A DNA stretch of 64,000 nt. Origin: Brucella pseudogrignonensis (lineage in GTDB: Bacteria; Pseudomonadota; Alphaproteobacteria; Rhizobiales; Rhizobiaceae). The DNA lies in assembly GCF_002252525.1 (NCBI RefSeq), contig NZ_NNRM01000001.1:1-64000 (forward strand), written 5' to 3'. Positions 21,427 through 39,530 of this stretch are shown here, one piece after another; within the stretch, counting starts at the first letter, position 1, and each line of letters begins with the position of its first letter. A model generated the notes under the pieces. That model saw only the letters and a list, made by a program, of their open reading frames with translations. It had not been told where the DNA came from and searched no databases. Made by a program: the position numbers and the translations under genes.

Positions 21427-22464
21427 TTAGGTATAAAATCGCACCATCGACTCCCGTGGCAGCACCTTGATTTTCGACCCATTTCCTGCGGCTCCAAATC
21501 GTTCGAACCGCTCCACGCAGACAGCTTCCATACGGCTGATACCGGGCTTGAACATACTGCGAATATCAAAAGAGCTCGGATTGGTCTTCAAATATTCTCG
21601 AGCCGATCCCGTCAGAGCCATTCGCAGATCGGTATCAATATTGATCTTGCGAACCCCCATTCGAATGGCACTCTCGACTTCCTCGAGCGGCACTCCAAAA
21701 GTTTTCGGCATGTGCCCGCCGCTACCGTTAATAAGATCCTGTAGATCTTCGGGTACAGTTGAGGCGCCATGCATTACGAGGTGAGTATAAGGGAGGAGCT
21801 GGTAGATAGCAGAGATGACATTCATAGCGAGAATATCACCCGTCGGTTTGCGGGAAAACTTGTAGGCTCCGTGTGACGTGCCGATTGCCACCGCTAGTGC
21901 ATCAACACCGGTTGCTGCAACAAAATCCGCGGCCTGTTGTGGATTGGTGAGTAATGCCTCGCGGTTGAGAGTCCCGACGAGGCCGTGACCGTCTTCTTGC
22001 TCGCCGCCGCCGGTTTCGAGTGAGCCGAGAACTCCAATTTCGCCCTCGACGGACACACCGCGGGCGTGCGCGTATGCTACCGTCCTGGCGGTGACGTCGA
22101 CGTTGTAGCTGTAGCTTGCCGGTGTCTTGCCATCGCCCTCCAACGATCCATCCATCATCACGCTGGTAAAACCTAGCGCGATAGCGCTTTCGCAGACTTC
22201 CGGTGTTGAGCCGTGATCCTGATGAAAGCAGACCGGTATGTTGGGAAAGCGTTGCGCCGCAGCTTTGACAAGGCCGCTCAACAGGATGTCATCAGCATAT
22301 TTCCGCGCGCTCTGGCTCGCTTGGACGATGACCGGGCTGTCCGTGCGTTCCGCAGCATTGAGCACCGCAAGAAGCGTTTCCAGATTGGTAATATTGAAGG
22401 CGGGTACGCCATAGCCGCGTTCGGCAGCGTGGTCAAGAATTTGACGCATGGTTGCGAGTGTCAT
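21427..22464 (-). CDS. fba: Class II fructose-bisphosphate aldolase (Calvin-cycle subtype)
   Basis: 345 residues, the usual length. It condenses dihydroxyacetone phosphate with glyceraldehyde 3-phosphate to fructose 1,6-bisphosphate, or the reverse, using zinc. Signature regions are VCFHQDHGSTPEVCESAI (zinc His), GFTSVMMDGS, VEGEIGVLGSLETGGGE (metal Glu), YTHLVMHGAS (zinc His) and RKINIDTDLRMA. The ATG at 22464 is chosen because GGAGGATATTC precedes it; the frame is open 14 codons further. It is the last gene of a minus-strand set with otnC and otnK, which make dihydroxyacetone phosphate, so it probably channels that triose phosphate into hexose phosphate together with the fbp, tal and tkt genes across the regulator. 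Confidence 0.93.
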   Translation of the reverse strand: MTLATMRQILDHAAERGYGVPAFNITNLETLLAVLNAAERTDSPVIVQASQSARKYADDILLSGLVKAAAQRFPNIPVCFHQDHGSTPEVCESAIALGFTSVMMDGSLEGDGKTPASYSYNVDVTARTVAYAHARGVSVEGEIGVLGSLETGGGEQEDGHGLVGTLNREALLTNPQQAADFVAATGVDALAVAIGTSHGAYKFSRKPTGDILAMNVISAIYQLLPYTHLVMHGASTVPEDLQDLINGSGGHMPKTFGVPLEEVESAIRMGVRKINIDTDLRMALTGSAREYLKTNPSSFDIRSMFKPGISRMEAVCVERFERFGAAGNGSKIKVLPRESMVRFYT

Positions 22465-22530
22465 GAATATCCTCCCATAATAGTAATAATAAGACCGTAG
22501 ACCCAAATGCGACCCTGTTCTTGGGCAACT

Positions 22531-23169
22531 TCAGTTGGGAAAGGACCTGTTGATCTCGGCAATTTCCTCGGCGCGCAGCGGCGAGGTCTTTCTGTCTCCA
22601 AGGATGAAGAAGAGCTTTGCGGTCTCCTCAAGTTCCTCGTAGGCGTAAACTGCTTCTTCCAGACTTGACCCGGAGACGATCGGCCCGTGATTGGCAAGCA
22701 GCATCGACCGGTGATCTCGCGATACTTTCTTCACTTCGTTTGCCAAGGCTCGGTCGCCCGGCCGGAAATAGCGTACAAGTGGCAGACGTCCGACGCGCAT
22801 CACATGATAAGCGGTGAGTGGCGGCAAGACATTGTCCGTCTGTTCATGGCAAAGGCAGGAAACAGCAACAGAATAGGTCGAATGCAGATGTACTACTGCC
22901 CGCGCAGCTAGCCGTTCTTCATAGACGGCCAGGTGGAAGAAATATTCCTTCGACGGTTGGTCGCCGCTGATCAGTTTTCCGTCGGGCGTGAGTTTGGAGA
23001 TGCGATCCTCTTCCAGGAAGCCGAGACTTGAATTTGTTGGCGTGACGAGGACGCAGCCATCGTCGAGTTTGACCGAAAGATTTCCCGCGCTGCCGTGGGC
23101 AAGTTGGCGTGTATAGAGAAGCCCGCCCATGCGAACGAGCTTTCTGCGCAGTTCCGATTCGTCGCTCAT
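22531..23169 (-). CDS. otnC: Class II aldolase/adducin family decarboxylase, OtnC-like
   Basis: 212 residues of the class II aldolase/adducin fold. The zinc ligands can be seen as HLH in RAVVHLHSTYSVAVS and a His in LLANHGPIVSG; GSAGNLSVKLDDG and the catalytic Glu in QPSKEYFFHL are typical. In the four-carbon sugar acid pathways OtnC decarboxylates 3-oxo-tetronate 4-phosphate to dihydroxyacetone phosphate. The assignment rests on fold plus the overlap (four bases, ATGA) with the otnK gene upstream, the classical pairing. Other class II aldolases such as fuculose-phosphate aldolase have the same fold, so the exact substrate is inferred. Confidence 0.88.
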   Translation of the reverse strand: MSDESELRRKLVRMGGLLYTRQLAHGSAGNLSVKLDDGCVLVTPTNSSLGFLEEDRISKLTPDGKLISGDQPSKEYFFHLAVYEERLAARAVVHLHSTYSVAVSCLCHEQTDNVLPPLTAYHVMRVGRLPLVRYFRPGDRALANEVKKVSRDHRSMLLANHGPIVSGSSLEEAVYAYEELEETAKLFFILGDRKTSPLRAEEIAEINRSFPN

Positions 23170-37351: not shown

Positions 37352-37514
37352 TCCGCATGCTGGTGACTCTTGGCATCACCCGCAGCAGGTCATCGGTCCA
37401 TTCATTGATCGCTTGAGAGCGGTGCGATGGCGGGCGTGCGACTGCGTTCGCAGACTCGACGATACCGGCATGCCCGTCGCGACAACCGCTTCGCCAACGA
37501 ACAGGATCCACGGA

Positions 37515-39530
37515 ATGAAAAATCTCTCTTCGCTCAACGTGCGCTCGACAACCACGCGTGACGATCGCGGCACGGACATGGCGAATGCTCTGCGCTTTCT
37601 CGCCATTGACGCAGTCCAGAAAGCGAACTCCGGTCATCCGGGGATGCCGATGGGAATGGCGGATGTTGCCGCCGTGCTGTTTTCACAGTTCATCAACATT
37701 GACCCTGCAGCCCCGGATTGGCCGGATCGCGACAGGTTCGTTCTTTCGAACGGGCATGGATCGATGCTGCTATACGCCCTGCATCACCTGCTAGGCTACG
37801 AAGATATGACTATGGAGCAGGTACAGTCATTCCGGCGCCTCGGATCCAAGACGGCAGGTCACCCTGAATATGGCCATGCGCTCGGAATCGAGACGACGAC
37901 GGGACCGCTTGGACAGGGTCTGACCACAGCCATTGGCATGGCGCTTGCGGAGCGCATGCAAAATGCACGCTTTGGCGACGAGCTCGTTGACCACTACACC
38001 TATGTTTTCTGTGGCGACGGTTGCCTCATGGAGGGTATCAGCCAGGAAGCCATTGATCTCGCCGGTCATCTCAAGCTCGGCAAACTGATCGTCCTGTTCG
38101 ATGACAACGGTATATCGATCGACGGCCGGACCGCACTGGCGACGTCTACCGATCAGGTCAAGCGTGTACAGGCCTCCGGCTGGAATGCGACGCGTGTCGA
38201 TGGCCACGATCAGGTGGCGATCCGTCAGGCGATCGAGGCAGCGCGGTCGTCCGATAGGCCTACATTGATCGCGTGCAAGACGGTGATCGGTTACGGTTCA
38301 CCAAAACTTGCCGGTTCTGAGAAGTCGCACGGCGCGCCTCTTGGCGAACAGGAAATCGCTGCGACCCGTGAGAACCTCGGCTGGAGTTCTGAGCCATTCT
38401 TAGTTCCTGATAGCGTGCGCAGTTACTGGCTCACTGTTGCAGAACGCGGCAGGACAACGCGTAGAGAATGGGCGTTGCGCCTTGAGGGGTCGACGAAGCG
38501 AGCCGCATTCGACGCATCGATCCGCGGTGATCTGCCGGGCGATTTTGCCGGTTCGATGGAGCGATATCGTCAAAAGCTACTTAGCAATGCACCGAAGATT
38601 GCCACCCGCAAGGCTTCGGAAGATGTGCTTGGATTGATCAACGAGGCGACGGAGCTCACCGTCGGCGGTTCGGCCGATCTGACGCACTCCGTCTTCACCC
38701 TGACCAAGGATATGAGCGACGTGCAGGCGGACAGCTACGCGGGCCGGTACATCCGCTATGGAATTCGCGAACACGGCATGGCTGCGGTGATGAACGGATT
38801 GGCGCTTCATGGCGGCTTCATTCCTTACGGCGGTACGTTCCTCGTCTTCTCTGACTATATGCGCGGCGCTATGCGGCTTTCGGCGTTGATGGGATTGCGC
38901 GTGATCTATGTGCTTACACACGATTCGATCGGCCTTGGAGAGGACGGACCGACACATCAGCCGATAGAGCATTTGACCATGCTGCGCGCGACGCCGGGAT
39001 TGCTGGTATTTCGTCCAGCCGATGCGATCGAGACGGCCGAAGTCTGGGAGATCGCTATCAATCAGTTCCGTCCATCCGTTCTTTCGCTCTCGCGCCAGAA
39101 TTTGCCCCTTTTGCGAACCGGCTCCGTCGAAAAAAACCTCTCGTGCAAAGGAGGCTATATCTTGAAGGACGTGGCAGGTGACCGGGATGTCACTTTACTC
39201 GCGAGCGGTTCCGAGCTTGAAATCGCAGTAAAGGCTGCAGAAACCTTGCATACGAGGGGTGTCGCAGCGGCGGTTGTCTCCATGCCGAGCCACGAACTTT
39301 TCCTGGAGCAGGACGAAGCTTACCGCAACGAAGTTCTTGGAACCACACCGCGTGTGGCGATCGAGGCGGCTGTGGGAATGTCCTGGGACCGCTTCCTCAC
39401 TCCGACAGATATCTTCATCGGAATGGAAACGTTTGGCGCATCTGGCCCGGCATCGGAGCTTTATTCCCATTTTGGTATCACAGCCGGTCGTGTCGTCGCC
39501 GAGGCATCGAAACTCGTCGGTAGATCCTAA
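37515..39530 (+). CDS. tkt: Transketolase
   Basis: 671 residues from MKNLSSLNVR, preceded by ACGGA; the frame is open to 37317 but that would overlap the isomerase gene. Thiamine diphosphate enzyme with the normal three domains: NSGHPGMPMGMADVAAVLFS, the GDGCLMEGISQEA...N motif, and the pyrimidine domain ADLTHSVFTLTKD with GIREHGMAAVMNGLALHGG. It moves two-carbon units in the pentose phosphate pathway and works with Tal, encoded at the head of the same strand. The next sequence downstream is a decayed pgi gene. Confidence 0.96.
   Translation: MKNLSSLNVRSTTTRDDRGTDMANALRFLAIDAVQKANSGHPGMPMGMADVAAVLFSQFINIDPAAPDWPDRDRFVLSNGHGSMLLYALHHLLGYEDMTMEQVQSFRRLGSKTAGHPEYGHALGIETTTGPLGQGLTTAIGMALAERMQNARFGDELVDHYTYVFCGDGCLMEGISQEAIDLAGHLKLGKLIVLFDDNGISIDGRTALATSTDQVKRVQASGWNATRVDGHDQVAIRQAIEAARSSDRPTLIACKTVIGYGSPKLAGSEKSHGAPLGEQEIAATRENLGWSSEPFLVPDSVRSYWLTVAERGRTTRREWALRLEGSTKRAAFDASIRGDLPGDFAGSMERYRQKLLSNAPKIATRKASEDVLGLINEATELTVGGSADLTHSVFTLTKDMSDVQADSYAGRYIRYGIREHGMAAVMNGLALHGGFIPYGGTFLVFSDYMRGAMRLSALMGLRVIYVLTHDSIGLGEDGPTHQPIEHLTMLRATPGLLVFRPADAIETAEVWEIAINQFRPSVLSLSRQNLPLLRTGSVEKNLSCKGGYILKDVAGDRDVTLLASGSELEIAVKAAETLHTRGVAAAVVSMPSHELFLEQDEAYRNEVLGTTPRVAIEAAVGMSWDRFLTPTDIFIGMETFGASGPASELYSHFGITAGRVVAEASKLVGRS

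What the first reader, a model, noticed from the sequence alone, without database searches (positions are those of the whole stretch)
21427..39530. Tetronate degradation linked to a full triose-to-pentose cycle gene set
One IclR regulator sits between fba-otnC-otnK-racemase-SBP and tal-gnd-zwf-fbp-adh-dctA-M24-otnI-tkt. OtnI, OtnK and OtnC give dihydroxyacetone phosphate; Fba and Fbp give fructose 6-phosphate; Zwf and Gnd oxidise hexose phosphate with CO2 release; Tal and Tkt recycle pentoses. Together they could form a dedicated oxidative cycle for C4 sugar acids that does not rely on the host's central genes. I do not know a described system with this complete linkage.
Basis: partly seen in the sequence, partly recalled or inferred. 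Interest (0 to 1): 0.8.

Follow-up and report, generated by a model that had tools for sequence, protein, structure and literature searches.

The report
C4-acid operon with pentose-phosphate cycle genes
A mobile bacterial gene set that probably serves to eat a four-carbon sugar acid travels with its own copies of central sugar-burning enzymes, apparently under one shared switch, which suggests that some bacteria carry a near ready-made pathway for burning this food to carbon dioxide.

Summary
All 15 genes and coordinates are confirmed, and the linkage recurs. Of 13 loci (window included) in 12 genomes with the adh-M24-otnI core, six carry five or more of fba, fbp, pgi, zwf, gnd, tal, tkt: window, a rhizobial relative, two Microvirga, Devosia, Pelagibacterium; five carry at most fba. 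Of 80 sampled otnK loci of the order, one has such genes. Both Microvirga modules also hold pgl, and their zwf and gnd are the only full-length copies found in those genomes. Module gnd, zwf and pgi each form a clade apart from chromosomal copies. A palindrome, TTTCA-N5-TGAAA, lies before the otn operon, iclR, adh and gnd; a matrix trained on the otn/iclR promoter finds it about 90 bp before gnd in 8 of 8 module copies and 0 of 9 chromosomal ones.
Corrections: the window's module lacks pgl, tpi, rpe, rpi and working pgi, so it leans on the host. No threonate or erythronate dehydrogenase is present, OtnI is below cut-off, and the host has a canonical erythronate/threonate operon elsewhere: the substrate is open. 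Cycle operation is inferred. New variant of a known kind.

The parts
21427..22506 (-). fba, class II fructose-bisphosphate aldolase (TIGR01521 type B)
   Evidence: also in the module of G434, G004, G435 (C10) and G444
22531..23169 (-). [quoted passage not shown]
   Evidence: NF043034 308 vs 250 bits
23166..24443 (-). otnK, 3-oxo-tetronate kinase
   Evidence: NF043035 539 vs 350 bits
24447..25127 (-). Asp/Glu racemase-superfamily protein with one conserved Cys (C84); proposed C2 epimerase of 3-oxo-tetronate (inference)
   Evidence: PF01177; alignment of 19 homologues
25130..25834 (-). ModA/SBP_bac_11-like protein that starts at the mature domain (no signal peptide seen by eye); probably cytosolic
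25955..25969 (.). predicted IclR operator, exact TTTCA-N5-TGAAA, in the divergent otn/iclR promoter
26056..26070 (.). second predicted operator, 1 mismatch, upstream of iclR
26085..27005 (+). IclR-family regulator
27133..28098 (+). tal, transaldolase
   Evidence: TIGR00874 over cut-off; no clear operator of its own
28256..28270 (.). predicted IclR operator 93 bp before gnd, 1 mismatch
28349..29776 (+). gnd, 6-phosphogluconate dehydrogenase (decarboxylating)
   Evidence: module clade
29789..31267 (+). zwf, glucose-6-phosphate dehydrogenase
   Evidence: module clade
31264..32310 (+). fbp, class 1 fructose-bisphosphatase
32312..32326 (.). predicted IclR operator 204 bp before adh, 1 mismatch
32516..33679 (+). 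Zn-dependent alcohol dehydrogenase, L-threonine 3-dehydrogenase-like; 84-95% identical across the other 12 module loci
33772..35142 (+). dctA-type C4-dicarboxylate symporter (TctA/TctC genes stand here in some relatives)
35244..36452 (+). M24 metallopeptidase-fold enzyme, role unknown; D251, D262, H325, E363, E377 conserved in 14 of 14 rows (13 module, 1 Rhizobium)
36491..37351 (+). otnI-like 2-oxo-tetronate / hydroxypyruvate isomerase family
   Evidence: below both cut-offs
37317..39530 (+). tkt, transketolase; true start probably near 37575
39669..40303 (+). decayed pgi (glucose-6-phosphate isomerase) remnant with internal stops
   Evidence: pieces 39669-40025, 39803-39943 and 40013-40303 against the module pgi of L003

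Best explanation
A horizontally spreading, IclR-controlled catabolic module. A C4 sugar acid or a derivative enters by DctA or a TctABC-type transporter and is processed by the Zn-ADH, the M24 enzyme, the OtnI-like isomerase and the racemase-like protein to 3-oxo-tetronate. OtnK phosphorylates this and OtnC decarboxylates it, giving DHAP and CO2. The same regulator switches on enzymes of the pentose phosphate cycle: Fba and Fbp (triose phosphate to F6P), Pgi, Zwf, in Microvirga also Pgl, and Gnd (F6P to ribulose 5-phosphate, CO2 and 2 NADPH), Tal and Tkt (pentose back to hexose and triose phosphate). With no PF00365-type phosphofructokinase in the host, triose phosphate can be drawn up and burned through this cycle. 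In the window the host lends Pgl and Pgi and, by inference, Tpi, Rpe and Rpi. Shown: gene content, recurrence, separate ancestry of gnd/zwf/pgi copies, shared palindrome, no PF00365 match. Inferred: substrate, enzyme order before OtnK, flux direction, and that IclR binds the palindrome.
For: Families. Recurrence: G434, G438, G439, G443, G444 carry 5-6 of the seven sugar-phosphate genes, G004 four (fba, gnd, fbp, tal), G437 gnd alone; order and orientation differ. pgi belongs to the unit in 5 genomes; pgl follows tkt in both Microvirga. Module gnd (8), zwf (6), pgi (5) each form one clade (99/99, 99/100, 100/100); the two Microvirga pair, and Devosia+Pelagibacterium pair, in all three trees, window+G434 in gnd and zwf. 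Operator: 46 of 47 sites with at most one mismatch in the 13 module regions lie outside mapped genes. A matrix trained on 20 otn/iclR-promoter sites scores 8 of 8 module gnd promoters 11.6-20.3 at -89 to -95; 9 chromosomal gnd promoters reach at most 8.4, 13 zwf 1.9 and 10 pgi 5.2. In 68 other adh loci 18 of 22 exact sites lie within 400 bp of an iclR start. In G438 and G439 module zwf and gnd are the only full-length copies. No PF00365 match in the host; the model matches 9 of 14 control genomes.
Against: Five of 13 module loci carry at most fba of the seven genes (G435 C10 fba only; G435 C4, G440, G441, G442 none in the stretches fetched; their gnd and zwf are of the chromosomal type on other contigs), so the sugar-phosphate part is an optional add-on. 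The window's pgi is dead and its module has no pgl. tal and pgi have no clear operator of their own and tkt a clear one in 1 of 4. Only 18 of 53 iclR-adh loci without the core have an exact site near iclR, and half of the window's 8 near-matches lie outside the module. In Devosia rac, otnK and otnC are missing beside Tni-type transposition genes. The trees carry long-branch warnings for some chromosomal rows, and one clade means the association may have arisen once. No expression, growth or flux data.
Confidence: 0.62

Rival explanations
1. The sugar-phosphate genes serve gluconeogenic and biosynthetic demand (F6P, pentoses, E4P, NADPH) during growth on a C3-yielding substrate, and do not run as a closed cycle to CO2.
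For: Fba and Fbp are gluconeogenic; Tal and Tkt give pentoses without oxidation; G004 and G437 keep only part of the set. [quoted passage not shown]
Against: Pgi, Zwf, Gnd and, in Microvirga, Pgl form the oxidative branch, which the non-oxidative route does not need; gnd is the member most often kept (8 of 13 loci) with a position-conserved operator.
Confidence: 0.26
2. The substrate is not a simple tetronate: ADH, M24 and the racemase-like protein convert another carboxylate (a derivative or unusual stereoisomer) into the OtnK substrate. This is compatible with the main reading and concerns only its first steps.
For: No LtnD or DenD in the module; the host has a canonical DenD-LtnD-OtnK-OtnC-OtnI operon on C30; ADH and M24 are among the best conserved module genes, 84-95% and 77-92%; DctA or Tct transporters fit a carboxylate; the same ADH+IclR pair occurs beside Mo-hydroxylase and TPP-enzyme genes in other bacteria.
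Against: OtnK and OtnC score well above cut-off and an OtnI-like gene is present in all 13 loci; the ADH could be an alternative tetronate dehydrogenase.
Confidence: 0.45
3. The sugar-phosphate genes are accidental cargo gathered on a mobile region and not functionally coupled.
For: Transposase and resolvase genes lie in the left flank; GC differs (56.7% against 50.9% and 52.3%); pgi has decayed here; five loci lack the set.
Against: Retention in six genomes despite rearrangement, own clades, and a shared palindrome at a fixed distance before gnd in 8 of 8; 1 of 80 otnK stretches of the order carries such genes.
Confidence: 0.06

Closest known systems
Four-step L-threonate/D-erythronate pathway (LtnD/DenD, OtnI, OtnK, OtnC; Zhang et al. 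2016, not read, seen as cited in passages of PMC12540250 and PMC10580937)
   Same: OtnK and OtnC over curated cut-offs, OtnI-like protein, DHAP + CO2 expected as product.
   Different: No LtnD or DenD; Zn-ADH, M24, racemase-like and cytosolic SBP-like proteins instead; IclR regulator; linked sugar-phosphate genes.
Brucella VdtR erythronate cluster (PMC10580937, passages seen)
   Same: Aldolase-DUF1537 cluster in related bacteria; the window's host has a cluster with the same enzymes on C30.
   Different: DeoR-family VdtR (the host's C30 cluster has a NanR-like protein, below cut-off, beside it) and an MFS gene; no sugar-phosphate gene among the seven genes named in the passages seen.
Brucella erythritol catabolism feeding the pentose phosphate shunt (PMC11005471, passages including parts of the abstract; Barbier et al. 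2014 seen only in a reference list)
   Same: C4 substrate linked to pentose phosphate metabolism and to Fba/Fbp/Tal in a related group.
   Different: Enters at erythrose 4-phosphate; the ery genes as recalled hold no zwf, gnd or pgi.
Textbook cyclic (oxidative) pentose phosphate pathway; Calvin cbb operons with fba, fbp, tkt (both recalled)
   Same: Same enzymes; the fba is of type B (TIGR01521).
   Different: No RuBisCO or phosphoribulokinase here; tied to a catabolic operon with one IclR.

Membership tests
OtnI-OtnK-OtnC tetronate pathway | OtnK and OtnC over curated cut-offs | tested here: met
   539 vs 350 and 308 vs 250 bits
OtnI-OtnK-OtnC tetronate pathway | OtnI 2-oxo-tetronate isomerase | tested here: inconclusive
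   238 vs 325 bits; the host's canonical OtnI also scores below it, 296
OtnI-OtnK-OtnC tetronate pathway | LtnD or DenD dehydrogenase in the cluster | tested here: not met
   no protein over NF043037 or NF043036; best is Gnd at 40 bits against NF043037
OtnI-OtnK-OtnC tetronate pathway | Growth on or induction by a tetronate | not testable with these tools
   needs growth and expression tests
Oxidative pentose phosphate cycle | Zwf, Gnd, Tal, Tkt, Fba, Fbp in the module | tested here: met
   with fbp by Pfam
Oxidative pentose phosphate cycle | Pgi in the module | tested here: inconclusive
   decayed in the window, intact in 5 relatives; host chromosomal pgi on C8
Oxidative pentose phosphate cycle | Pgl in the module | tested here: inconclusive
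   no match in the window or in the module stretches of 9 other genomes; present after tkt in both Microvirga; the host's one copy is on C39
Oxidative pentose phosphate cycle | Tpi, Rpe, Rpi in the module | tested here: not met
   window: the 15 ORFs tile the strip with gaps of at most 250 bp; relatives: one plasmid TpiA as query finds no match; rpe and rpi were not searched in relatives, nor tpi, rpe, rpi in the host
One IclR regulon | Shared operator before otn operon, iclR and gnd-zwf-fbp | tested here: met
   12 of 13 sbp and 12 of 12 iclR promoters (the training regions) and, independently, 8 of 8 gnd promoters score 11.6 or more
One IclR regulon | Binding of IclR to it | not testable with these tools
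   needs gel-shift or footprint
Calvin cbb operon | RuBisCO and phosphoribulokinase | tested here: not met
   none among the 15 proteins

The most novel reading that the evidence does not exclude
A mobile module that carries, under one regulator, both a C4-acid pathway to DHAP and a near-complete oxidative pentose phosphate cycle, so that the acid can be burned to CO2 with NADPH yield outside the TCA cycle. In Microvirga, where it holds pgi, zwf, pgl, gnd, tal and tkt and is the only source found of zwf and gnd, it may confer oxidative pentose phosphate metabolism itself.
Probability: 0.43. Interest if true: 0.75.

Novelty: new variant of a known kind. Interest (0 to 1): 0.62.

Why it matters
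Catabolic operons normally end at a central intermediate and leave the rest to the host. Here central-metabolism enzymes form their own clades and gnd-zwf-fbp carries the predicted operator of the catabolic regulator. If flux confirms it, this is a transferable, substrate-switched central cycle, a natural example for pathway design, and a route by which a bacterium without Zwf and Gnd could gain oxidative pentose phosphate metabolism. It also gives a motif and marker genes (adh + M24 + rac-otnKC) with which to find the unknown substrate.

Tried and rejected
Chance linkage: rejected on recurrence, trees and operator. otnK in general being linked to pentose-phosphate genes: rejected, 1 of 80. 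The 80 stretches are about half of the otnK matches listed, the host's second otnK included, the window's own left out; 69 are about 19.2 kb, 11 are shorter, 4.4-17.7 kb. M24 as a marker in samples: 3 of 397 order genomes and 1 of 386 class genomes at E <= 1e-150, own genome included in both. Calvin-type operon: no RuBisCO or PRK. Plain threonate/erythronate as the sure substrate: weakened by the missing LtnD/DenD and the host's second operon. Naming the substrate from neighbours (Mo-hydroxylase/TPP-enzyme context, YeiH-like and FMN_dh neighbours, plasmid relatives) gave no consistent answer. PDB sequence matches for M24 and rac are too distant to assign a reaction. Megablast of the cluster in plasmids found only pieces of 3% of the query or less in 11 records. 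Trees were built for gnd, zwf and pgi only. Other Microvirga genomes were not searched for zwf/gnd. The G438 assembly is a metagenome bin, so absence there is weaker. In G434 too the only full-length gnd is the module's, beside pieces at 28-58%. Two of three motif strings tried on Zwf/Gnd matched nothing and were not used. Promoter/terminator scan, Rfam, structure prediction and fold search were not used.
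Full report
1. What is there. Strong: fba (TIGR01521), otnC, otnK, tal, gnd, zwf, dctA and tkt exceed NCBIfam cut-offs; fbp exceeds Pfam's and misses the best NCBIfam cut-off by about 2 bits (355.7 vs 358). Weaker: the 'otnI' is below the cut-off of both 2-oxo-tetronate isomerase and hydroxypyruvate isomerase, though the host's canonical OtnI is below too. The ADH is nearest to L-threonine 3-dehydrogenases. The 'SBP' begins at the mature domain, with no signal peptide seen by eye, so it is probably cytosolic. The racemase-like protein keeps one Cys (C84) in 19 of 19 homologues; at the usual second Cys site 18 of 19 have His-Phe-Ser (the two-Cys rule is recalled).

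2. What was missed. Downstream of tkt lies a decayed pgi (39669-40303, in pieces with stops). In five relatives an intact pgi stands in the module. In both Microvirga modules a pgl follows tkt (PF01182, 36% identical to the host's Pgl); the window and the module stretches of the other genomes gave no pgl match. So the fullest modules hold the whole arc F6P-G6P-6PGL-6PG-Ru5P.

3. Recurrence. The adh was used as a marker: the 80 best loci of 494 relatives in the GTDB genome collection. Twelve of the 80 carry m24 and otnI beside adh. Sugar-phosphate genes: G000 fba tal gnd zwf fbp tkt (+ dead pgi); G434 fba gnd zwf fbp tkt pgi; G438 and G439 (Microvirga) tal pgi gnd zwf fbp tkt (+ pgl); G443 (Devosia) tal pgi gnd zwf fbp; G444 (Pelagibacterium) tal pgi gnd zwf fbp fba; G004 fba gnd fbp tal; G437 gnd; G435-C10 fba; G435-C4, G440, G441, G442 none in the stretches fetched. 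In G435 and G440-G442 the gnd and zwf found genome-wide are of the chromosomal type, on contigs other than those of the module otnK. Order and orientation differ: in Microvirga adh-dctA-m24-otnI-tal-pgi, then otnC-otnK-rac-sbp reversed, then iclR-gnd-zwf-fbp-tkt. Linkage kept despite shuffling argues for selection. Against: in Devosia rac, otnK and otnC are absent next to TniA/B/Q-like genes, with only distant otnK (50% and 46%) elsewhere. Baseline: of 80 stretches around otnK genes taken from the order list, one has sugar-phosphate genes, and it is Pelagibacterium. An Agrobacterium vitis plasmid shows a looser form: sbp-rac-otnK-otnC-fba-fbp-TctABC-otnI with an alpha-hydroxy-acid oxidase, no adh or M24 match, and an otnK match in two pieces.

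4. Ancestry. Module gnd (8 rows against 9 chromosomal), zwf (6 against 13) and pgi (5 against 10) each form one side of a branch with supports 99/99, 99/100 and 100/100. G438+G439 and G443+G444 pair in all three trees, G000+G434 in gnd and zwf (the window's dead pgi was not in the tree; the tool warned of long branches, mainly chromosomal rows such as G441 and extra zwf copies of G434). So these are not fresh host duplications but older paralogues inherited with the module. One clade also means that the association need have formed only once. In G438 and G439 the module zwf is the only zwf match and the module gnd the only full-length gnd (other hits 27-31% and partial); G438 is a metagenome bin, G439 an isolate draft.

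5. Regulation. A palindrome screen of 87 upstream stretches in the 13 loci gave TTTCA-N5-TGAAA as the top hit: 28 stretches in 12 loci, 0 in the mapped coding sequence (divergent promoters count twice). With at most one mismatch, 47 sites occur in the module regions, 46 outside mapped genes: upstream of adh in 12 of 13 loci, in the otn/iclR promoter(s) of 12 of 13. To avoid circularity a matrix was trained only on the 20 exact sbp/iclR-promoter sites and applied to 250 bp upstream of every gene (starts set by homology). Module gnd: 8 of 8 score 11.6-20.3 (six at 18.1 or more, the two Microvirga 11.6), all at -89 to -95. Controls: 9 chromosomal gnd promoters reach at most 8.4 (the host's own), 13 zwf 1.9, 10 pgi 5.2. 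The like-for-like control is gnd, since module zwf and fbp lie inside operons and have no site either. No module copy of tal, zwf, fbp, pgi, dctA, otnI, fba, otnK or otnC scores above 4.6; m24 has a site in 3 of 13, tkt clearly in 1 of 4 (G438, 12.0), rac 10.5 in one genome. In 68 further adh loci without the m24/otnI core, 53 have an iclR; 18 of these 53 have an exact site within 400 bp of its start, out of 22 exact sites in 1.18 Mb. That ties the motif to this IclR type, though 35 of 53 lack an exact copy. In the window 8 sites with at most one mismatch were found against 2.7 expected; one is exact, four lie in the module and four outside it. Motifs of IclR, KdgR and AllR in one table passage of PMC8222616 differ (only that passage was seen).

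6. Host context. The host has no PF00365 match (PfkB-type kinases not tested), one pgl next to the chromosomal zwf, chromosomal zwf, gnd, pgi and tkt, and a canonical operon with D-erythronate dehydrogenase (365 vs 325 bits), L-threonate dehydrogenase (380 vs 350), OtnK, OtnC and OtnI on C30. So the module duplicates existing abilities here, and its substrate need not be plain erythronate or threonate. The window's contig has 67120 bases; its flanks match Ochrobactrum plasmids best among plasmid records (44% and 25% of the two queries, 85-86% identity). The module has 56.7% GC against 50.9% and 52.3% in the flanks, with IS3-like, IS240-like and resolvase genes in the left flank.

7. Mechanism. 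OtnK and OtnC give DHAP + CO2. With Fba, Fbp, Pgi, Zwf, Pgl, Gnd, Tal and Tkt, plus Tpi, Rpe and Rpi, the textbook cycle oxidises triose phosphate to CO2 with NADPH (recalled). Fba and phosphatase can also make sedoheptulose 7-phosphate in Brucella (PMC11005471, passage of the abstract), which may replace Tal where it is missing (G434). Steps before OtnK are inferred: ADH as the dehydrogenase, the racemase-like protein as an epimerase of the acidic C2 of 3-oxo-tetronate, M24 unknown (its five metal-type ligands are kept in 14 of 14 rows; ligand rule recalled).

8. Literature. Searched: threonate/erythronate/DUF1537 (912 papers hold one, 25 listed), threonate + pentose phosphate + gene cluster + transketolase + G6PDH (0), 3-oxo-tetronate (8), erythritol/Brucella (28, 10 listed), cyclic pentose phosphate pathway (146, 12 listed), Microvirga (1), tetronate + pentose phosphate (3), four-carbon acid sugar/IclR (311, 10 listed). 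Passages of PMC10580937, PMC11005471, PMC12540250 and PMC8222616 were seen; of the rest only listings. I saw no description of this linkage; subscription papers are mostly not held.

9. Verdict. A real, recurrent, probably co-regulated module.

Noticed in passing
window 40786-49152: A second sugar-acid type cluster: GntR/FCD regulator, enolase-superfamily dehydratase, amidohydrolase, SDR, HpcH aldolase, KduI-like isomerase, Zn-ADH, MFS transporter, SDR. No match above 36% identity in the other module loci; Devosia has distant dehydratase, SDR and ADH matches (23-31%) near its adh.
   Followed up: partly
L104 9127-21128 (Phaeobacter plasmid) and L008: The same IclR+ADH pair heads an unnamed pathway with Mo-hydroxylase, TctABC-type transporter, a TPP enzyme nearest IolD (far below cut-off) and aldehyde dehydrogenase; 18 of 53 iclR-adh loci have the same palindrome near iclR.
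   Followed up: partly
G000 C30 (L201 6254-12521): Canonical D-erythronate/L-threonate operon in the host genome, with a NanR-like (below cut-off) regulator.
   Followed up: yes
L228 6784-10154 (Devosia): TniA/TniB/TniQ-like genes beside sbp where rac-otnK-otnC would be expected.
   Followed up: partly
L305 9001-15272 (Paracoccus yeei plasmid): Another otnK-otnC pair near an alcohol dehydrogenase and an M24-fold enzyme, here DddP (844 vs 600 bits).
   Followed up: no
L103 12663-13921 (Agrobacterium vitis plasmid): The otnK match is split into two overlapping pieces, possibly a frameshift; described only.
   Followed up: no
L301 7397-13131 (Rhizobium sp. NXC24 plasmid): A rac-otnK-otnC relative that carries an annotated tpiA, with an isocitrate/isopropylmalate-type dehydrogenase upstream.
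   Followed up: no
window 20400-21250: Reads like a degenerate IS630-type transposase region next to fba; judged by eye only.
   Followed up: no
window 6957-15551: EAL-domain protein followed by two large autotransporters, with a matching Ochrobactrum plasmid.
   Followed up: no
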